Positions 657 to 64,000 of a stretch of 64,000 nucleotides of DNA are shown piece after piece. Source of the DNA: Candidatus Praeruminimicrobium purgamenti (GTDB lineage: Bacteria; Elusimicrobiota; Endomicrobiia; Endomicrobiales; Endomicrobiaceae); contig JAHDQW010000007.1 of assembly GCA_018433585.1 (NCBI GenBank), forward strand, positions 62,001 through 126,000. Reading direction: 5' to 3'. Each line of letters starts with the position of its first letter. Within the stretch, counting starts at the first letter, position 1. The notes under the pieces are model-generated. The model was not told the origin of the DNA. It made no database searches and saw nothing but the letters and a program-made list of their open reading frames with translations. The translations under genes were made by a program, and so were the position numbers.

Positions 657-2250
657 TGTGTCTGTTTTTTAACATTGTTTTTATTTGTTCGAGTTTTTCC
701 GATACGTCAGAATCGTAAGGGTTTATTTTGAAAGCTTCTTTTGTATAGAAGTAAGCTTTTTTTATATTGTTTTTTTTAAGGTAAATTTCTCCGAGAGTAC
801 TCATGCTTCCGAATTTGAGAAACGGTTTATTTCTCGAGTCTGATAAAATATTTAAACATATTTTTTCGGCTTCGTCGGTATTGCCTTCATGTATAAGTAT
901 CGACGTTATATCAAAGATATATCTGTCGCCGTAGCTTAATCTGTAAGCTTCGTAAATAAAATTTTTATACTGTTCGTAATCGCCTGCGGATAAATAAACT
1001 TTTGCAAGCCCGTTGAGGACCAGGTGATAATCGGGTGCATCAATATAAGCCGTCGACCAGTATACGTCTGCTTTTTTGTATTTGTCCGTTTGAATATAAG
1101 ACAGGTATAAAAACATTGAAAAAAACATTAAGTACAAAGCAATCAAATATTTTTTTGATACCGGATAACGCGTTATAACATAATGAACAAGAGACGTTAT
1201 AATAACTGCAACGCCCAAAGACGAAAGTATTAATCTGTGCGGCAGGAAAATATATTCTTTTTGTAAAAAAGTCGGCAAAAGCAAAAGGATAAACCACGCG
1301 GCCGCAAACAGAATATTTTTTTTGCCGGTAATTTTCTTTACATACATAAAGACAAGAAGAAATAAAACTGCGGCATTCATTATAACGATGCTTATACCGA
1401 TTTTAATATTATGAAGCATCAGCGGAATGTAGTCGGGCATTATAAATTTGTCTATATATGTCATAGTCCCTGATATAGTGTTGAAAGCGTATTTTTTATA
1501 GTTTAAAAAATATTCTTTTGAATCTATGGGAGCTACGGCTGAATTTCTGAAAATGAAATAAATTATTATAACAGGAATTAAAATCATAAGGTTTTTGAGT
1601 ATCTGCTGTTTTGATATTTTATAATTGAAACAGCAGATAAGAAAAATATATATCGGCACAAGCATAAACATTGTTTCTTTTGTGAATAAAGCCAGCGTGA
1701 AGAACAAACAATGCAAAAGCAGATATTTGGTTTTATTTTGCTCGATAAAACTTAGAAAATTTATAAATGCTAAACAGATAAATGCCGTAAGAAGAGTATC
1801 GTTTCTTCCGGGAATCCACGCAATGCATGAAACGAATATCGGATGCGCGGCCATAAGCAAAAATATAAATTTTAAAATGTTTTTATCAAATTTTAATTTT
1901 ACAAGCAGCAGATAGCTTGAATACAGCGCAAGAATAAAAAATATTATATTTGTAAAATGATAAATTTTAGGACTTGAACCGAAAAAAATCGTTTCTGCCG
2001 CAAAAGACAGGTTGAGCACAGGCCTGTAATAAAAACTGTTGTTTGAAAGATAGCAGGAAGTAAAAAAAAGGTGCGGGATATTTTTTGCTTCTGACAGAAA
2101 TTTCGTATTATTGATAATCAATATGTCGTCATCGTGATATGTAAAATCAAAGTTAATGCTTTTGCCGTATAACAGAAATACCGTTATTGAAAGCAGCAGT
2201 AAAAATCCGGCGTTTGTCGTAATAAAATTTTTTATTTTAGATAAAAACAT
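646..2250 (-). CDS. Polytopic membrane protein with C-terminal TPR repeats, TMTC/GT-C-like
   Basis: This 534-residue protein has many hydrophobic segments between about residues 12 and 390, followed by a soluble C-terminal part (about 400-534) that reads as helical TPR repeats. After the first membrane segment there is an acidic loop with D40, D41 and D42, the position where GT-C glycosyltransferases such as PMT and TMTC carry their catalytic acidic residues. Combined with the C-terminal TPRs, this layout resembles bacterial TMTC-like proteins. A role in transferring a sugar from a lipid-linked donor to an envelope target is inferred and no substrate can be named. It lies between glyS and comEC in the same orientation. 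The Shine-Dalgarno sequence before the ATG at 2250 is weak. Confidence 0.65.
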   Translation of the reverse strand: MFLSKIKNFITTNAGFLLLLSITVFLLYGKSINFDFTYHDDDILIINNTKFLSEAKNIPHLFFTSCYLSNNSFYYRPVLNLSFAAETIFFGSSPKIYHFTNIIFFILALYSSYLLLVKLKFDKNILKFIFLLMAAHPIFVSCIAWIPGRNDTLLTAFICLAFINFLSFIEQNKTKYLLLHCLFFTLALFTKETMFMLVPIYIFLICCFNYKISKQQILKNLMILIPVIIIYFIFRNSAVAPIDSKEYFLNYKKYAFNTISGTMTYIDKFIMPDYIPLMLHNIKIGISIVIMNAAVLFLLVFMYVKKITGKKNILFAAAWFILLLLPTFLQKEYIFLPHRLILSSLGVAVIITSLVHYVITRYPVSKKYLIALYLMFFSMFLYLSYIQTDKYKKADVYWSTAYIDAPDYHLVLNGLAKVYLSAGDYEQYKNFIYEAYRLSYGDRYIFDITSILIHEGNTDEAEKICLNILSDSRNKPFLKFGSMSTLGEIYLKKNNIKKAYFYTKEAFKINPYDSDVSEKLEQIKTMLKNRHNAV

Positions 2251-2280
2251 AAAGACTCTTTTTCAGTAAACAGTATTTGT

Positions 2281-4389
2281 TTATTGCAATGATGACAGAG
2301 AAACAAAAGAATTAAATCTGTCAGTTATAAAATTTATTAAAGATATTCTGTTAAGCTTAAGATTTTCGTCTTCGCACATAACCATTACTTTTTCAAAAAA
2401 CAAATCCAAAAACGGTTTTATATCGTTTAATTTGCTGATGGCTTCCGAATAATTTTTTGTTTCGATAAGAGAAATAAGCTCTTGGTCTGTAAGAGAATAC
2501 TTTTCATATAACTTTTTCTCGGCTTCTTCCTGCAATAACGAAACATTCACTTTTTCGGGAATCTGCAGCTTTTGTTTTTTTGCCTGGTTCAGAATATTGG
2601 TCGCTCTTTTAAAAATGGTTGTAATCGATTCAAAAGAAGCTTCTTTTCTTAAGCTTTGCAAAGCTTCCAGCTTTATTTTTATATCTCCGATATTCTTTAT
2701 GCCGTTTTTTTGGCACGGAATAATTACGCATTTTACTTCGTCGGGTTTAAAACCTTCGTTTTCGTATATGTTTTCTATTCTGTTCCATAAAAATTTTTCG
2801 AACCTTTCTTTTGCCGTTTTGAAAGTGTCCATATTTTTTATCTTTTCAGGCATATTGTACAAAGCGGTATCGATCATTTTTTCGATATCAGCTTCAGGTA
2901 TAAAATCTCTTATCATTCTTATCATGCCGATTGACATTCTTCTGAGTCCGTAAGGATCCGCAGAACCTGAAGGCTCCAGACCTATTGCGAAATCGGCTGT
3001 CAAAGTATCGAGTTTATCGGCAAGAGAAACGACCGCCGCGAGCTTGCTTTGCGGAAGCGCGCCGGAAGCGCTTAGAGGATAATAATGCTGCTCGACTGCC
3101 TGTGAAATATCAAAAGGCTCTCCTGCGGCATCTGAGTATATCCTTCCCATAATGCCCTGAAGTTCCGGATATTCAAAAACCATTTCGCTGACCAAATCCG
3201 TTTTTGATAAATCAACGACTTTATTAATCTTTTGAGAATCGCATGATAAATGACTCTCTTCGTTTATAAAATGCGCAAGAGCTTTTATCCGGAGAAGTTT
3301 TTCATATACGGTTCCGATTTCCTTTTGGAATATTAATCCTTTAAGCCTTTCAAGAGAAGATTCCGTGGTTTTTTTTATGTCATTTTCATAGAAAAATTCC
3401 GAATCTGAAAGTCTTGCTGCGACGACTTTTTCATAACCTTCTCTTACGATATGCTGGTTTTCGGATTTTCCGTTCCTTATACCGATGAAATAATTTGTAA
3501 GTTTTCCGTTAGCGTCTTTTATTGCGAAACATTTTTGCTTTTTCTTCAAACATGTAATTAAAACTTCAGGAGGAAGCTTTAAATATTTTTCTTCAAATTT
3601 GCATAATACTGCGGTAGGAAATTCTACAAGCTGGTTGACTTCATCAACAAGTTCGTCATCCAAAACGGCTTTTGATGAAATTGTATCTGCCGCTTCGTTG
3701 ATTGAAAAAATAATTTTTTTTCTTCTTTCTTCCTGATCAACCAAAACACAGTTGTTTTGTAAAATATTTTTATAATCGTCAGCGCGGGTTATAATGACAG
3801 GCTTTGAGGTTAATGTATGGAGTCCTGTTGTTTTATTGGAAGATTTTATTGAGCCGCCGGCAAGAGAAAATTTAATTACTTTATCGCCGAACATCGCAAC
3901 TATTGTTCTTACCGGTCTTGCAAATTTAAGGCAGGAGCTTTCCCAAACCATTGTTTTCGGAAAATAAATTTTTTGTATCAGGCACGGCAGTATTTCCGAT
4001 AAAAGAGCTTCGGTTTTTACTCCTTTTATTTGTTTTACATAATGGAAATATTGTCCTTTTTCCGTTTCTTTGATTAAAAGCTGTTCAGGTTTTATATTAA
4101 GTTTTGAGGAAAAACCTATGACTGCCTGAGTCCAGTTTCCGTTGGCGTCTTTACCGGCTTTAACGGAAGGCCCGTTAAATTCCTGAGTTTTGTCTTCGCT
4201 TTTTTCCGCAACGTCATTTATTATTAAAACAAGTCTTCTTGGAGTGGAATATGTCTTTATGCCTGAAAAGTTCAAACCGGCGTTATTAAGCATATCTGTC
4301 GCAAACTTCTGCATCTGTTCAAGAGCAGGGGCGATATATGATGACGGAATTTCTTCAGTTCCTATTTCAAGTAAAACATTTTTTGCCAT
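2281..4389 (-). CDS. glyS: Glycyl-tRNA synthetase beta subunit
   Basis: Beta subunit of the heterotetrameric bacterial glycyl-tRNA synthetase. It recognises tRNA-Gly and supports glycine attachment by the alpha subunit. The N-terminus (MAKNVLLEIGTEEIP) is a signature of the family, and the 702-residue length is usual. An upstream TTG at 4407 gives a six-residue extension, but an AAGGA ribosome binding site lies inside that extension and is well placed for the ATG at 4389, so I chose 4389. The gene follows glyQ by 27 bases, the normal arrangement for this two-gene enzyme. The C-terminal region is the expected helical anticodon-binding part. No key residue is obviously missing. Confidence 0.96.
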   Translation of the reverse strand: MAKNVLLEIGTEEIPSSYIAPALEQMQKFATDMLNNAGLNFSGIKTYSTPRRLVLIINDVAEKSEDKTQEFNGPSVKAGKDANGNWTQAVIGFSSKLNIKPEQLLIKETEKGQYFHYVKQIKGVKTEALLSEILPCLIQKIYFPKTMVWESSCLKFARPVRTIVAMFGDKVIKFSLAGGSIKSSNKTTGLHTLTSKPVIITRADDYKNILQNNCVLVDQEERRKKIIFSINEAADTISSKAVLDDELVDEVNQLVEFPTAVLCKFEEKYLKLPPEVLITCLKKKQKCFAIKDANGKLTNYFIGIRNGKSENQHIVREGYEKVVAARLSDSEFFYENDIKKTTESSLERLKGLIFQKEIGTVYEKLLRIKALAHFINEESHLSCDSQKINKVVDLSKTDLVSEMVFEYPELQGIMGRIYSDAAGEPFDISQAVEQHYYPLSASGALPQSKLAAVVSLADKLDTLTADFAIGLEPSGSADPYGLRRMSIGMIRMIRDFIPEADIEKMIDTALYNMPEKIKNMDTFKTAKERFEKFLWNRIENIYENEGFKPDEVKCVIIPCQKNGIKNIGDIKIKLEALQSLRKEASFESITTIFKRATNILNQAKKQKLQIPEKVNVSLLQEEAEKKLYEKYSLTDQELISLIETKNYSEAISKLNDIKPFLDLFFEKVMVMCEDENLKLNRISLINFITDRFNSFVSLSSLQ

Positions 4390-4416: not shown

Positions 4417-5271
4417 TTATTTATCTTTGGAATCTAACAGTTTTATATATCCTTCGGCAACCATTTTTGCAAGTGTTCTTACCCTTAAAACATAGCTCAC
4501 TCTTTCGGATACGGAAATAGCGCTTCTTGCGTCTAACATGTTAAACAAGTGCGAACATTTCATTACGGCATCGTAAGCCGGCAGAACCAAATTTGCTTCA
4601 ACAAGTTTTTTTGCTTCCGTTTCCCAGTCAGTAAAATGTTTCAGCAGCATTTCAGTATTTGCTATTTCAAAGTTGTATTTTGACCATTGCTTTTCATCTT
4701 CAAGATGGACGTCTCCGTAAGTTACTTCGTCAGTCCACATTAAATCGTAGACATTGCTTTTCTTTTGGGAATACATGGCAAGCCTTTCAAGTCCGTATGT
4801 TATTTCCACGGAAATAGGATTAAGTTCTATTCCTCCGACCTGTTGGAAATATGTAAATTGGGTTGCTTCCATTCCGTCAATCCATACTTCCCAGCCGAGT
4901 CCCCATGCGCCAAGCGTAGGCGATTCCCAGTCGTCTTCAACAAATCTTATATCGTGTTCGGTAGGATCAAGCCCTATTGCTTTTAAACTTTCCAGATACA
5001 TTTGCTGTATGTTTGCAGGCGCAGGTTTCATGATTACCTGAAATTGGTAATAGTGCTGCAGTCTGTTAGGATTTTCTCCGTATCTGCCGTCCGTAGGTCT
5101 TCTTGAAGGTTCAACGTAAGCAACGTTCCACGGTTTATTTCCCAGACATCTTAAAAATGTAGCCGGATTAAAAGTTCCCGCTCCTTTTTCCAAATCGTAA
5201 GGCTGCCATATCAGACATCCTTTTTTTGCCCAAAACGTATGGAGCTTCATAATAATTTCTTGAAAATTCAT
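4417..5271 (-). CDS. glyQ: Glycyl-tRNA synthetase alpha subunit
   Basis: Catalytic alpha subunit of the heterotetrameric class II glycyl-tRNA synthetase, 284 residues, close to the usual length of about 290-300. The opening stretch [20 protein letters not shown] and the later segment [14 protein letters not shown] are strongly conserved family landmarks covering the motif 1 and motif 2 regions. The start at 5271 is supported by an AGAGGA ribosome binding site. It sits between recO (15 bases upstream) and glyS (27 bases downstream) in one operon. It makes glycyl-adenylate and transfers glycine to tRNA-Gly together with GlyS. Confidence 0.97.
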
Positions 5272-59040: not shown

Positions 59041-59218
59041 CTCTATAGCGACTACAATCTTTTAGTTGCAACTTTGAATTTTTAAAGCTCATTTACTGCT
59101 TCGCTTAAATATAAACTTCACTTTAAAAATTCTTCGTTTCACTTACAAATATTGTATCCTTTAAAAACTATATTTCATTTAAAATATTGATTCCAAAAAC
59201 AGAAATAAAATTTTGAAT

Positions 59219-59248
59219 TTGACAAAACATACATCTGTATGGTATAAT
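59219..59248 (+). promoter_or_regulatory. Promoter of the restriction-modification operon with an operator-like inverted repeat
   Basis: TTGACA (59219-59224), 18 bases, TATAAT (59243-59248). A perfect inverted repeat, CATACA-TC-TGTATG (59228-59241), occupies the spacer. It is placed where a bound dimer would block polymerase, as control proteins or regulatory methylases do in other restriction systems. The leader to the chosen start is about 75 bases. Apart from this promoter, the 59041-59331 spacer holds no gene-sized frame that I can support. Confidence 0.7.
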
Positions 59249-59331
59249 AAAATAACTTTAAAATTTGTTAATTTACTAAGTATTAAAAATAAATGTATAA
59301 TTGTACAAATAATAAAAATAACAAAGGTGTC

Positions 59332-60234
59332 ATGACAACAAATACTATTATAAAACCATTCATAAAATGGGCGGGTGGTAAAAAACAGTTGTTATCAGAT
59401 ATCCGTCAAAAATATCCATTCAATATAGATAATAAAATTAATAAATACTGTGAACCTTTTGTAGGTGGCGGAGCGGTTTTATTTGATATTTTATCTAATT
59501 ATCAAATAGAAAAAATCTTAATTAACGATATCAATAAAGAATTAATTAATGTGTATACTCAAATTAAAGAAAAAGTTTCTGAACTTATTATTGAATTATC
59601 AAAAATTCAAAATAAATTTTGGAAAATGGATAATGAAGCACAAAAAAAGTTTTACTATAAAAAAAGAGAAGAATTTAATTATCTTAAAGTGAACGGCGAT
59701 GAAAAAGTTAATATAAAAAAAGCAGTGTTATTTATATTTCTTAACAAAACATGTTTCAATGGCCTTTTTAGAGTTAATTCAAAAGGGTTGTTTAATGTTC
59801 CTAAAGGAGCATATAAAAAACCTCTTATTTGTGATGAAAATAATTTAATATCAATATCAAAAAAAATGAAAAAAGTGTCTATTCTTTGTGGAGATTACGA
59901 AAAATGCTTATCTTTTATTGATAAGAATGCTTTTGTTTATATTGATCCTCCATACCGTCCAATATCGTTAACGGCTAAATTTACTGCATATTCTGAAAAT
60001 ATATTTAATGATCCTGAACAATACAGATTAGGCAAATTTATTGATGAAATAAATAAAAAAGGGTCAAAAGTTATATTAAGTAATTCAGATCCTAAAAATA
60101 CAAATAAAAAAGATAACTTTTTTGATGATATGTATAAAAATTATAATATTGATCGTATTATCGCAAAAAGATTTATAAATTGTGATGCAACAAAAAGAAG
60201 CGAGATAACAGAATTATTAATAACTAATTATTAA
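59332..60234 (+). CDS. Dam/DpnM-type DNA adenine N6-methyltransferase (GATC)
   Basis: Class alpha D12 adenine methylase. KPFIKWAGGKKQLL and CEPFVGGGAVLFDIL form motifs X and I; VYIDPPYRP is catalytic motif IV (DPPY). The family methylates A in GATC and protects against the DpnII-type nuclease encoded downstream. The frame opens at 59293, but the ATG at 59332 follows an AAAGG ribosome binding site and gives the normal N-terminus (300 residues). Confidence 0.92.
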   Translation: MTTNTIIKPFIKWAGGKKQLLSDIRQKYPFNIDNKINKYCEPFVGGGAVLFDILSNYQIEKILINDINKELINVYTQIKEKVSELIIELSKIQNKFWKMDNEAQKKFYYKKREEFNYLKVNGDEKVNIKKAVLFIFLNKTCFNGLFRVNSKGLFNVPKGAYKKPLICDENNLISISKKMKKVSILCGDYEKCLSFIDKNAFVYIDPPYRPISLTAKFTAYSENIFNDPEQYRLGKFIDEINKKGSKVILSNSDPKNTNKKDNFFDDMYKNYNIDRIIAKRFINCDATKRSEITELLITNY

Positions 60235-60246
60235 TAGGCAGGCGTT

Positions 60247-61041
60247 ATGAAAAATACTGTAGATTTAGATTTTAATGAAAGACAAAAATTATTGCAACAT
60301 TTTTATGAATATTTTCAAGACGGATATCAGTTTGAAGAATTTTTAAAATACTATTTAGAAATATTTGGGTTGGATGAAGTTGTAGTTACACAGAGATCGC
60401 GAGATGGTGGAATTGATTTGAAAGCAATAAGAAAAGGTCTTGGCGGATTCAGTGAAACAGATTCTATATCGTATTATGTCCAAGCTAAGAAAAACAAACC
60501 AAATAAATCAATATCAGTTAGGAATATCAGAGAATTAAAAGGTACAATCCCTTTTGGACACAAGGGAATATTTATTACTACTGCAAAATTTTCAAGAGAT
60601 TCTATCAAAGAATCTAATAATGACCTATCCAAACCTATAATTTTAATTGACGGCAAAGCTTTAATAGATAGTTGTATAGAAAAAGAAATAGGCTTCAGCT
60701 ATAAACCAATATTTAGTAAATCAATCATGGATAAAATATTACAAAACACTGGTATAGTTGATTCTGTAGAAAAACAAATTACTGCAAACGATATAAGAGC
60801 ATATATTTTACCTATTCCTAGAGATATTATTAATAAAATTCCGGAAAATCTTACTAAATTAAAAGTATCATTTAATGGTGGAGAATTTAAGCAATATAAT
60901 ATTGATAATGGTAGAAGGTATTTGGGCGGAATAGCTCAAATATATCGTCAATATGGACTTAGGACAGAAGATAACATAATTATCCCTAAAAAAGCAAAGT
61001 GGAATATAGCAGATGATAACAAAATTACAATTATTATTTAA
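60247..61041 (+). CDS. Mrr-like restriction endonuclease
   Basis: A 264-residue protein with an N-terminal Mrr-type PD-(D/E)xK domain: FEEFLKYYLEIFG, then RDGGID with catalytic D57, and YYVQAKK with Q79 and K81. HKGIFITTAKFSRDSI continues the domain. The C-terminal part (about 170-264) is unassigned. Mrr relatives cleave either modified DNA (type IV) or act as type II enzymes with their own methylase. It lies between a Dam-type methylase and a DpnII-type nuclease in one operon. Confidence 0.82.
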   Translation: MKNTVDLDFNERQKLLQHFYEYFQDGYQFEEFLKYYLEIFGLDEVVVTQRSRDGGIDLKAIRKGLGGFSETDSISYYVQAKKNKPNKSISVRNIRELKGTIPFGHKGIFITTAKFSRDSIKESNNDLSKPIILIDGKALIDSCIEKEIGFSYKPIFSKSIMDKILQNTGIVDSVEKQITANDIRAYILPIPRDIINKIPENLTKLKVSFNGGEFKQYNIDNGRRYLGGIAQIYRQYGLRTEDNIIIPKKAKWNIADDNKITIII

Positions 61042-61063
61042 TAATTTAATATTAGGATAAAAA

Positions 61064-61912
61064 ATGACAAGAGATTTTAATGAATGGTTTAGTAAATTTT
61101 GTTCCAGTATTTCAGATTATGCATATTATGTAGATTTTGAAAAAGTTTTTAAAAATACTGAGAAAATTAAAATTGAGTTGAATATTCTTAATTCATTGAT
61201 TGGTTCAAAAAATATAGAACAAGATTTTGAAAAAATCATAAAAGAATATCCTCAAACATTAAAATGTATTCCAATATTATTAGCAGTCAGGTCTTTTGAA
61301 ATATTTGCTATGGATGCAGATGGCTCATTTTTTTATAATTTTAAGAAAATGAATTATTCTGTAGAACAGTATAAAATTTTTATGAGAAAAACAGGACTAT
61401 TTGATTTATTGGCAAATCATTTAATTAATAATCTGGTTGATTATATATATGGAGTTGAAACAGGGCTTGATTCAAATGGGCGTAAAAACCGTGGTGGTCA
61501 TATAATGGAAAATCTTGTAGAAAGTTATCTTAAAAAAACAAGTATAGTTTATTATAAAGAGATGTATTTAAAAGATATAGAAGAAAAATGGCATCTTGAT
61601 TTGTCTGCTTTATCAAATAATGGCAAGGCTAAAAAGCGTTTTGATTTTGTTGTAAAAACAGATTCTACAGTTTATGCGATTGAAACTAATTTTTATGCTG
61701 GGGGCGGTTCAAAATTAAATGAAACAGCTCGTAGTTATAAAATGTTAGCTGTAGAATCACAAAAGATAAATGGGTTTTCTTTTGTTTGGTTTACTGATGG
61801 TATGGCATGGAAAACAGCCCGTAGAAATTTGGAAGAAACATTTGATGTTATGGAACATATATATAGTATTAACGATATAAAAAATGGAATTATGGATAAA
61901 ATTTTTAAATAG
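61064..61912 (+). CDS. DpnII-family restriction endonuclease (GATC)
   Basis: A 282-residue protein with strong similarity to R.DpnII over its length: FNEWFSKF, LNSLIGSKNIEQDF, LDSNGRKNRGGHIMENLVESYL and GGSKLNETARSYKM. The catalytic core is D194 (KRFDFVVK) and E207-T-N209 in IETNFYAGGGSK, the DpnII form of PD-(D/E)xK. It cuts unmethylated GATC. The upstream Dam-type methylase supplies protection. It starts 22 bases after the Mrr-like gene. Confidence 0.93.
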   Translation: MTRDFNEWFSKFCSSISDYAYYVDFEKVFKNTEKIKIELNILNSLIGSKNIEQDFEKIIKEYPQTLKCIPILLAVRSFEIFAMDADGSFFYNFKKMNYSVEQYKIFMRKTGLFDLLANHLINNLVDYIYGVETGLDSNGRKNRGGHIMENLVESYLKKTSIVYYKEMYLKDIEEKWHLDLSALSNNGKAKKRFDFVVKTDSTVYAIETNFYAGGGSKLNETARSYKMLAVESQKINGFSFVWFTDGMAWKTARRNLEETFDVMEHIYSINDIKNGIMDKIFK

Positions 61913-61914
61913 CT

Positions 61915-62658
61915 ATGGCGAAAAAATATATTGAATTTCCACCAGAGGATTTTGAACTTGAATTAAATACTGTATGGAGTTTTCCGCAAAGAGGCAATTG
62001 GGCAACTCATGATGCTAAATACCGCGGAAATTGGTCACCATATATACCAAGAAATATATTGTTAAGATACTCTCAAGAAAAAGATTTAGTGTTAGATCAA
62101 TTTGTCGGTGGTGGAACAACTCTTGTTGAAGCTAAATTACTAAATAGAAATATTATAGGTATTGATGTTAATCCTGAATCATTACAAAGATGCAAAGAAA
62201 AATGTAACTTTAAAATAGAAAACTCATCAAAAATTACAATCAAAAAAGGTGATGCTCGTAAATTAAATTTTATTGAAAATGATTCAATAGATTTAATATG
62301 CACACATCCTCCTTATACGAATATAATTCAATACAGTGAAAATATAAAAGAAGATATTTCTCATTGTGATATCAAAGAATTTTTAGAACAAATGAAACTT
62401 GTAGCAAACGAAAGTTGCCGTGTTTTAAAAAAAGATAAATTCTGTGCTATTTTAATGGGTGATATAAGGCGTAAAGGACATGTTGTCCCTTTAGGATTTG
62501 ATGTTATGAATATATTTGTTAACTCCGGATTAAAACTAAAAGAAATTATCATAAAAGAACAGCATAATTGCAAAGCAACAGGATACTGGAAAACAAGCAG
62601 TATTAAATATAATTTTTTATTACTAGCCCATGAATATTTATTTGTGTTTAAAAAATAA
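61915..62658 (+). CDS. Putative DNA methyltransferase with HPPY motif
   Basis: A 247-residue SAM-dependent methylase. Motif I is DQFVGGGTTLVEAKLL (residues 61-76), followed by IIGIDVNPESL, and motif IV is THPPY (130-134) in place of DPPY. Motif I precedes motif IV, unlike DpnA-type enzymes, where motif IV comes first. The HPPY form occurs in some DNA and RNA N-methylases, so the target base and sequence are uncertain. Its ATG is two bases after the stop of the DpnII-like gene, so the two are coupled. Confidence 0.78.
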   Translation: MAKKYIEFPPEDFELELNTVWSFPQRGNWATHDAKYRGNWSPYIPRNILLRYSQEKDLVLDQFVGGGTTLVEAKLLNRNIIGIDVNPESLQRCKEKCNFKIENSSKITIKKGDARKLNFIENDSIDLICTHPPYTNIIQYSENIKEDISHCDIKEFLEQMKLVANESCRVLKKDKFCAILMGDIRRKGHVVPLGFDVMNIFVNSGLKLKEIIIKEQHNCKATGYWKTSSIKYNFLLLAHEYLFVFKK

Positions 62659-62769
62659 TAAAATTTTCCTCTTTTAGAAAATTACTTGTTTTGCATTTAT
62701 AACAATGATATTATATTCATATATTTTTAATTGACCGACTGAAAAATAGAGTAGTATTAGAATATAACA

Positions 62770-63312
62770 ATGATTAAATTATCTTTAAATGTTAACCATA
62801 ATACATTGACTACCAGGCAAGATGTACGCAATTATTTAATCCAAGAATTTTTGAAAGAAAAACCGGGTACTGGTAATCAAAAATCTGCATATCGCTATGA
62901 TGTTGAAACTCTTTCTAATGGGGATAAGATTTTTTTGGAAAGACCTGCTCATTTAAATAAAGGAATGGATTTTGTAATTAAAGTAGATAATAATATTTTT
63001 CCTCATGCTTCATACTATAAAAAACGACAAAAATGGATTTGGAAAAACATTGAAGCGCCTTCACATAAGTCTATCTTTATTGATTTGTATTATAAGAAAA
63101 TTGAGAATTCTCAAGTATATCAAAATCTATTTCTGGAAATAGAAAAGATATATAATGTAAAAAACTACTCAACAAGTTTAAATTTTAAGTATGGATATCC
63201 GTGCGATATGTTGTTAGGTATTATAAAATGGATGTTTATAGAGCAGGATATTACTTATTGGAATTATTCTGGAAGAGAAATGCTGATGAAAGAAATTTTA
63301 AAATATAAATAA
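62770..63312 (+). CDS. Unrecognised protein in the restriction-modification island
   Basis: A 180-residue protein with no family that I recognise. It reads as mixed alpha/beta with an aromatic, charged middle (YYKKRQKWIWKNIEAPSHKS) and a Trp/Tyr-rich C-terminus (WMFIEQDITYWNYSG). No PD-(D/E)xK, HNH or helix-turn-helix is evident. It is the last gene of the AT-rich island. TTGACC (62731-62736) and TATTAG (62755-62760) 18 bases apart could be its own promoter. Confidence 0.5.
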   Translation: MIKLSLNVNHNTLTTRQDVRNYLIQEFLKEKPGTGNQKSAYRYDVETLSNGDKIFLERPAHLNKGMDFVIKVDNNIFPHASYYKKRQKWIWKNIEAPSHKSIFIDLYYKKIENSQVYQNLFLEIEKIYNVKNYSTSLNFKYGYPCDMLLGIIKWMFIEQDITYWNYSGREMLMKEILKYK

Positions 63313-63386: not shown

Positions 63387-64000
63387 TCATTTCTTCTTAT
63401 ATCTGGCTTTTTCAATCAGTTCAATGATTTTCTGATCGCCGCTTTCTGTTGCAAGCATAAAAGGCGTAACTCTGTTATAATTTATTGCATTAGGATCTGC
63501 TCCGTGATCAAGCAGCATTTTGATAATCGGTATGTTTTTGTTTTGTATTGCAAAGAACAAAGCGCTGCCGCCCGGATTTCTTCTGTGCAGAGTAATCATT
63601 ATGTTTACGTCGGCATCATAATCTAAGAATAATTCCACAAGATCTGCATTGTTGTTTTTTACGGCAGTTATAAGAGGAGTTCCGCCTGAAACCAAATCCG
63701 TTTTTACATTAACGTTTGCTTTATGGTCAAGCAGCATTTTTGCAAGTTTCAGATTGTTCGTTTTTGCCGCAATCATCAAAGGAATATCTCTTGAAAAGCC
63801 TGATTCGTTCGTATCTGCGTTTCGGTCAAGCAGCATTTTAATAATTTCAGCATTGTTGTTGCGTATTGCAATCAGAAGAGGAGTTCCTCCTTCAATAATT
63901 CCTGTTTTTACATTTACCGCGGCGTCTTTATTAAGCAAAAATTTTACAAGCTTAACATTATTGTCTTTCACCGCAATTATTAAAGGATTTTCAATTGCCG
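63387..64000 (-). CDS. Ankyrin-repeat protein (5' end beyond window)
   Basis: The frame is open to the right window edge: the reading continues upstream of position 63971 as AIENPLIIAV, so the true start lies outside. The visible 200 or so residues hold about five ankyrin repeats of the form GGTPLLIAIRNNNAEIIKMLLDRNADTN. The end, PFMLATESGDQKIIELIEKARYKKK, closes the repeat domain. Ankyrin proteins mediate protein contacts; in host-associated bacteria some are secreted effectors. No signal is visible here. Confidence 0.9.
   Translation of the reverse strand, partial: AIENPLIIAVKDNNVKLVKFLLNKDAAVNVKTGIIEGGTPLLIAIRNNNAEIIKMLLDRNADTNESGFSRDIPLMIAAKTNNLKLAKMLLDHKANVNVKTDLVSGGTPLITAVKNNNADLVELFLDYDADVNIMITLHRRNPGGSALFFAIQNKNIPIIKMLLDHGADPNAINYNRVTPFMLATESGDQKIIELIEKARYKKK

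What the first reader, a model, noticed from the sequence alone, without database searches (positions are those of the whole stretch)
59219..63312. Compound GATC restriction island with two nucleases and two methylases in one operon
A Dam-type methylase, an Mrr-like nuclease, a DpnII-type nuclease and an HPPY methylase lie head to tail with 2-22 base gaps. Classical DpnII loci have two methylases and one nuclease. Here an extra Mrr nuclease is embedded and the second methylase is not of the DpnA type. It could combine GATC restriction with cutting of a second, possibly modified, site.
Basis: partly seen in the sequence, partly recalled or inferred. Interest (0 to 1): 0.6.

Follow-up and report, generated by a model that had tools for sequence, protein, structure and literature searches.

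The report
GATC restriction operon with embedded Mrr nuclease
A bacterium related to termite-gut Endomicrobia carries a DpnII-type DNA-cutting defence operon in which a second, Mrr-type nuclease sits between the usual genes; the same set recurs in distant bacteria, so this looks like a modular defence locus whose methylases stay fixed while its nucleases are exchanged.

Summary
Four intact genes, Dam methylase, Mrr-type nuclease, DpnII nuclease and HPPY methylase, lie head to tail with gaps of 12, 22 and 2 bases behind a consensus promoter, in a 25% GC island. A fifth gene, here called U180 (62770-63312), belongs too. The HPPY protein is the circularly permuted counterpart of DpnA, the second methylase of DpnII systems, and is not the Mrr enzyme's partner: of 65 related loci with enough upstream sequence, 63 have Dam just before HPPY, usually with DpnII and without Mrr. 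Between the two methylases is a variable slot holding DpnII, MutH-like, PD-(D/E)XK, HNH or Mrr nucleases. In a related Endomicrobiaceae genome both methylases are about 89% identical in DNA while the nuclease block is replaced. The Mrr protein joins an MspJI-like PD-QxK domain to a predicted B3-like DNA-binding domain. It recurs in DpnII or MutH loci (8 of 10 copies), once beside DpnI in a Dam-less genome, and once alone. A nuclease carried with and without host GATC methylation probably reads neither GATC nor GmATC; modification-dependent (Type IV-like) cutting is most likely, unproven. New variant of a known kind.

The parts
59219..59248 (+). operon promoter TTGACA-18-TATAAT, with a perfect 5-bp inverted repeat ATACA-TC-TGTAT (59229-59240) in the spacer
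   Evidence: 12/12 consensus with TG before -10; 59217-59249 conserved at 94% in L023 although the surrounding non-coding DNA is not
59332..60234 (+). Dam-type D12 adenine methylase (DpnM role); an upstream in-frame ATG at 59293 is also possible
   Evidence: PF02086 6.4e-62, TIGR00571 3.9e-85, intact DPPY; start by comparison with L023
60247..61041 (+). Mrr-type nuclease, 264 aa, whole gene
   Evidence: PF04471 3.7e-21; D..QAK active site present in 10 of 10 homologs
60319..60672 (+). MspJI-like Mrr catalytic domain of that nuclease (PD-QxK)
   Evidence: profile matches MspJI 1.2e-10 and AspBHI 8.8e-07; Foldseek MspJI 8.4e-08
60757..61038 (+). predicted B3-like DNA-binding domain, C-terminal part of that nuclease
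   Evidence: AlphaFold2 mean pLDDT 80.5, about 80-91 over most of this part; Foldseek to LlaJI.R1 N-terminal domain 6c5d and plant B3 domain 1yel, probability 1.00 each, E-values 0.005 and 0.013
61064..61912 (+). DpnII-family GATC endonuclease
   Evidence: PF04556 1.8e-107 over the full length; 66% identical to the Fusobacterium copy
61915..62658 (+). HPPY methylase: circularly permuted counterpart of DpnA
   Evidence: PF01555 in two stretches, C-terminal part of the profile matched by the N-terminal half; same inversion against 2zie; rotated-DpnA profile alignment 190 columns, E 7e-17
62770..63312 (+). U180: accessory of GATC restriction loci, function unknown
   Evidence: relatives next to HPPY or in the slot in L042, L046, L049, L066, L071, L100; 9 of 9 viral-contig relatives lie beside GATC restriction genes

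Best explanation
The locus is a horizontally acquired DpnII-type GATC restriction-modification operon of the HPPY subtype. Dam methylates GATC in double-stranded host DNA; HPPY, a circularly permuted DpnA counterpart, is the second GATC methylase (probably for single-stranded or newly entered DNA); DpnII cuts unmethylated GATC. Between the two methylases lies an exchangeable nuclease slot. Here it also holds an Mrr nuclease: an MspJI-like PD-QxK domain aimed by a B3-like domain. I propose that this enzyme is modification-dependent (Type IV-like) and cuts foreign DNA carrying base modifications that DpnII cannot cut, so one operon covers both unmodified and modified invaders. Shown by sequence comparison: gene identities, permutation, slot exchange, recurrence, domain make-up. 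Inferred: GATC specificity, the ssDNA role of HPPY, modification dependence of Mrr. Unknown: the role of U180.
For: Dam directly upstream of HPPY in 63 of 65 testable loci; 58 Dam-containing slots have DpnII, others MutH-like or PDDEXK_11 nucleases, sometimes as the only one recognised. Window against L023: 88.8% DNA identity over Dam, 89.7% over HPPY, no match across 60233-61940. HPPY-DpnA permutation. Mrr in 8 GATC loci: window, L002, L062, L068, L100, L030, L109 and a classical DpnA-DpnII locus, L161, never as the only nuclease. Mrr homolog beside DpnI (PF06044 4.7e-75; phmmer 4esj 1.1e-79) in G339, which has no D12 methylase, and solitary in G414, whose only full D12 methylase is paired with a TdeIII-type nuclease. 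The DpnI-linked copy groups with the Fusobacterium DpnII-locus copy, support 100/99. Catalytic relatives MspJI and AspBHI are modification-dependent. Canonical Mrr (Mrr_N + Mrr_cat) also occurs in such loci (L008; an Mrr_N-type homolog in L039), and a slot HNH protein matches a type IV model.
Against: No activity or methylome data. Catalytic-domain similarity does not by itself fix modification dependence (PMC3874153 cites LlaGI). Known B3-like restriction domains such as BfiI read defined sequences (PMC4081073), which would fit a plain Type II specificity. The C-terminal domain diverges faster than the catalytic domain (window-L002 37% against 67%), so homologs in DpnI or solitary settings may have other targets. 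Only two Dam-less cases are known. The fold match for the B3-like domain is of modest E-value.
Confidence: 0.6

Rival explanations
1. The Mrr-B3 protein is a second Type II nuclease that cuts unmethylated GATC, or a longer site containing GATC, and is kept harmless by Dam and HPPY; the slot simply stacks isoschizomers against phage inhibitors or modified bases.
For: Other slot nucleases look like GATC enzymes: MutH-like, and PDDEXK_11, which can be the only recognised nuclease. Mrr sits in the same slot. B3-like domains in known restriction enzymes read defined sequences.
Against: Homologs live in two genomes without a Dam-type GATC methylase, one of them with an intact DpnI that requires unmethylated host GATC. 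Mrr was never the only nuclease in a slot. Its putative recognition domain is less conserved than expected for one shared target.
Confidence: 0.2
2. Mrr and HPPY form an independent restriction pair with its own target, interleaved with a Dam-DpnII pair.
For: In Fusobacterium Mrr is directly followed by HPPY.
Against: HPPY is nearly always with Dam and usually without Mrr; Mrr occurs without HPPY in L110, L111 and L161; HPPY is a permuted DpnA; in L023 HPPY is 90% identical with no Mrr present.
Confidence: 0.07
3. The Mrr gene is a passive passenger of a defence island with no functional link to the GATC system.
For: Defence genes cluster; Mrr is rare and can be solitary (L111). In Elusimicrobiota it was found only in this genome, 1 of 248.
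Against: It recurs inside the operon, same strand, between Dam and DpnII, in several lineages, and also beside DpnI. Of five copies found by searching with Mrr itself, four are in GATC-directed loci.
Confidence: 0.13

Closest known systems
DpnII system of Streptococcus pneumoniae (DpnM, DpnA, DpnII; PMC3573125)
   Same: D12 Dam methylase, DpnII-family nuclease and a second methylase in one operon; DpnI is an alternative cassette in relatives
   Different: second methylase is circularly permuted and comes after the nuclease; an extra Mrr nuclease and U180; nuclease block exchangeable
MspJI / AspBHI (Type IIM modification-dependent enzymes)
   Same: Mrr-like PD-QxK catalytic domain, best sequence and fold match
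   Different: no SRA-like N-terminal domain; instead a C-terminal B3-like domain
Canonical Mrr (Type IV)
   Same: Mrr_cat domain
   Different: no Mrr_N domain; the DNA-binding domain is C-terminal
B3-like restriction specificity domains (LlaJI.R1 N-terminal domain, BfiI C-terminal domain)
   Same: predicted fold of the C-terminal domain
   Different: attached to an MspJI-like nuclease rather than to a McrB-type motor or a PLD nuclease

Membership tests
DpnII-type GATC restriction-modification system | D12/Dam-family methylase | tested here: met
   PF02086 6.4e-62, TIGR00571 3.9e-85
DpnII-type GATC restriction-modification system | DpnII-family endonuclease | tested here: met
   PF04556 1.8e-107, full length
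DpnII-type GATC restriction-modification system | second methylase of DpnA type (DPPY half first, motif I half last) | tested here: not met
   order reversed; HPPY aligns over its length with rotated DpnA only: a counterpart, not a collinear member
DpnII-type GATC restriction-modification system | methylation and cleavage at GATC | not testable with these tools
   needs methylome and cleavage assays
Mrr (Type IV) | Mrr_cat domain with intact catalytic residues | tested here: met
   PF04471 3.7e-21; D..QAK in 10 of 10 homologs
Mrr (Type IV) | Mrr_N DNA-binding domain | tested here: not met
   no PF14338 match in the window protein, whereas L008 has it
Mrr (Type IV) | modification-dependent cleavage | tested here: inconclusive
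   only indirect: Dam-less genomes with homologs, no constant methylase partner
MspJI family | MspJI-like PD-QxK catalytic domain | tested here: met
MspJI family | N-terminal SRA-like modified-base reader | tested here: not met
   the protein begins close to the catalytic domain; its other domain is C-terminal and B3-like

The most novel reading that the evidence does not exclude
GATC restriction loci are a platform: a fixed methylase pair (Dam plus DpnA or its permuted counterpart HPPY) carries an exchangeable set of nucleases and accessories, including a new Mrr-B3 nuclease family that reads modified DNA independently of the host's GATC state and can therefore move between DpnII loci and DpnI loci, plus a dedicated unknown component (U180).
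Probability: 0.4. Interest if true: 0.7.

Novelty: new variant of a known kind. Interest (0 to 1): 0.5.

Why it matters
DpnI/DpnII is the textbook case of complementary restriction. This locus suggests that it belongs to a wider modular arrangement in which methylases are fixed and nucleases are exchanged, and in which a nuclease for modified DNA is built into the same operon, closing the escape route of base modification. It also gives a permuted DpnA counterpart whose substrate can be tested, a new Mrr-B3 nuclease with possible use in mapping DNA modifications, and an uncharacterised component, U180.

Tried and rejected
Mrr-HPPY as an independent pair: suggested by the Fusobacterium hit, dropped after the 80-locus survey. 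Mrr as a GATC isoschizomer: kept as a rival but disfavoured by Dam-less hosts. Viral-contig searches for the Mrr family found none; the phage collection gave one full-length match, a 5-kb clone. The AlphaFold model of U180 is poor (pLDDT 63.6) and matched nothing in the PDB; phage and plasmid collections have no U180 by tblastn. Second methylases in the viral U180 loci first scored as HPPY but are true DpnA. Papers describing this arrangement: none found.

Full report
Observation. The region 59219-63312 holds Dam (59332 or 59293-60234), an Mrr-type nuclease (60247-61041), DpnII (61064-61912) and an HPPY methylase (61915-62658), all intact, on the + strand, with gaps of 12, 22 and 2 bp. A 12/12 promoter starts the interval. 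GC is about 25% against 37% in the rest of the window. The upstream neighbour is thyX (PF02511); in relative G002 the region beside thyX has no such genes. The closest named relative is an Endomicrobiaceae MAG (L023). The four families are confirmed in Pfam and PADLOC, Dam also in NCBIfam.

What HPPY is. The PF01555 match is in two stretches, and the N-terminal half of HPPY matches the C-terminal part of the profile; the PDB match 2zie shows the same inverted order. Seven true DpnA proteins were collected from viral contigs. Against the HPPY family their profile aligns over 84 columns as it stands and over 190 columns (E 7e-17) when the DpnA sequences are rotated. HPPY is therefore a circularly permuted counterpart of DpnA. 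None of the 80 HPPY loci has a close DpnA; one distant methylase (31% identity) lies about 3 kb away in L079.

A conserved frame with a variable slot. A scan of species genomes with the HPPY alignment gave 80 loci, mainly Clostridia, also Spirochaetaceae, Planctomycetaceae, Lentisphaerae, Oxalobacter and Granulicatella. Of 65 with more than 2.5 kb upstream, 63 have Dam upstream in the same direction. Between Dam and HPPY lie DpnII (58 loci), PDDEXK_11 proteins (15), MutH-like proteins (6), a 178-aa family F4 (6), Mrr-B3 (4), HNH (3) and others; DpnII is the only recognised nuclease in 38, PDDEXK_11 in 5, MutH-like in 1, Mrr-B3 in none. MutH itself acts at GATC (established knowledge), which supports GATC as the common target. 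In L023, Dam and HPPY are 88.8% and 89.7% identical in DNA to the window and the promoter 94%, but 60233-61940 has no match: Mrr and DpnII are replaced by a DpnII only about 37% identical in protein. This is an exchange of the nuclease block between fixed methylase genes.

The Mrr protein. The catalytic part matches MspJI and AspBHI by profile and fold, with D..QAK in all ten homologs. PD-QxK sites are described for modification-dependent enzymes such as MspJI (PMC12707154) and the BisI family (PMC11347163). The C-terminal 94 residues are modelled with good confidence and match B3-like domains (LlaJI.R1 6c5d; plant 1yel). The family is rare. Eight of ten copies are in DpnII or MutH loci, including one classical DpnA-type locus, L161. 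One is beside a full-length DpnI in a genome without any D12 methylase. One is solitary between housekeeping genes in G414, whose only full D12 methylase is paired with a TdeIII-type nuclease. The DpnI-linked copy is sister to the Fusobacterium DpnII-locus copy (100/99). If specificity is conserved, the target can be neither unmethylated GATC (DpnI and solitary hosts) nor double-stranded GmATC (Dam hosts). With no methylase as constant partner, modification dependence is the simplest reading. The weak points are the fast divergence of the C-terminal domain, the known sequence-reading B3-like domains, and the small number of Dam-less cases. Mrr proteins with an Mrr_N-type front (L008 by Pfam; L039 by similarity to it) also enter such loci, which fits.

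Ascertainment. Most slot copies of Mrr were found through HPPY and cannot measure association. Copies found by searching with Mrr itself are L002, L161, L109, L110 and L111: three in GATC loci, one with DpnI, one solitary.

U180. The ORF 62770-63312 has no significant Pfam, PADLOC or PDB match. Relatives lie beside HPPY or in the slot, and all nine viral-contig relatives lie beside Dam, DpnA, DpnII, MutH-like or PDDEXK_11 genes. It is a recurrent component of GATC loci of both subtypes; its function is unknown.

Novelty and score. No paper found in the searched library describes this arrangement; REBASE was not searchable. I rate it a new variant of a known kind. The recurrent architecture is well supported; the mechanism of Mrr is an inference.

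Noticed in passing
L130 (G321) 1474-3137; L133 (G424) 1270-2747: DpnI genes flanked by remnants of DpnII-type loci: an N-terminally truncated HPPY in L130 (residues from about 29 on) and a C-terminally truncated Dam in L133; these look like scars of DpnI/DpnII cassette exchange in Clostridia.
   Followed up: partly
L137-L145: Contigs called viral carry GATC loci, several with MutH-like, Dam, DpnA, DpnII and U180 together.
   Followed up: partly
L005 and L006: HPPY methylase inside longer proteins of 515-558 aa with a second methylase-like stretch; in L005 a distant U180 relative is adjacent.
   Followed up: no
G017 contigs C85, C142, C7, C26 (L004, L019, L022): One Endomicrobiaceae genome has two complete and two partial HPPY matches on separate contigs; it is 9% contaminated by the tool's estimate.
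   Followed up: no
L161 (MT838632) 2104-2706 and 4491-4892: A 5-kb clone labelled bacteriophage carries DpnA-Mrr-DpnII followed by a protein that reads like a TIR domain, and near its end one that reads like an insertion-sequence protein; the phage label is doubtful.
   Followed up: no
59229-59240: Perfect inverted repeat ATACA-TC-TGTAT in the promoter spacer, in a block conserved in L023; a possible operator for an unknown regulator.
   Followed up: no
63387-63998 (-): Ankyrin-repeat ORF running off the window end next to the island.
   Followed up: no
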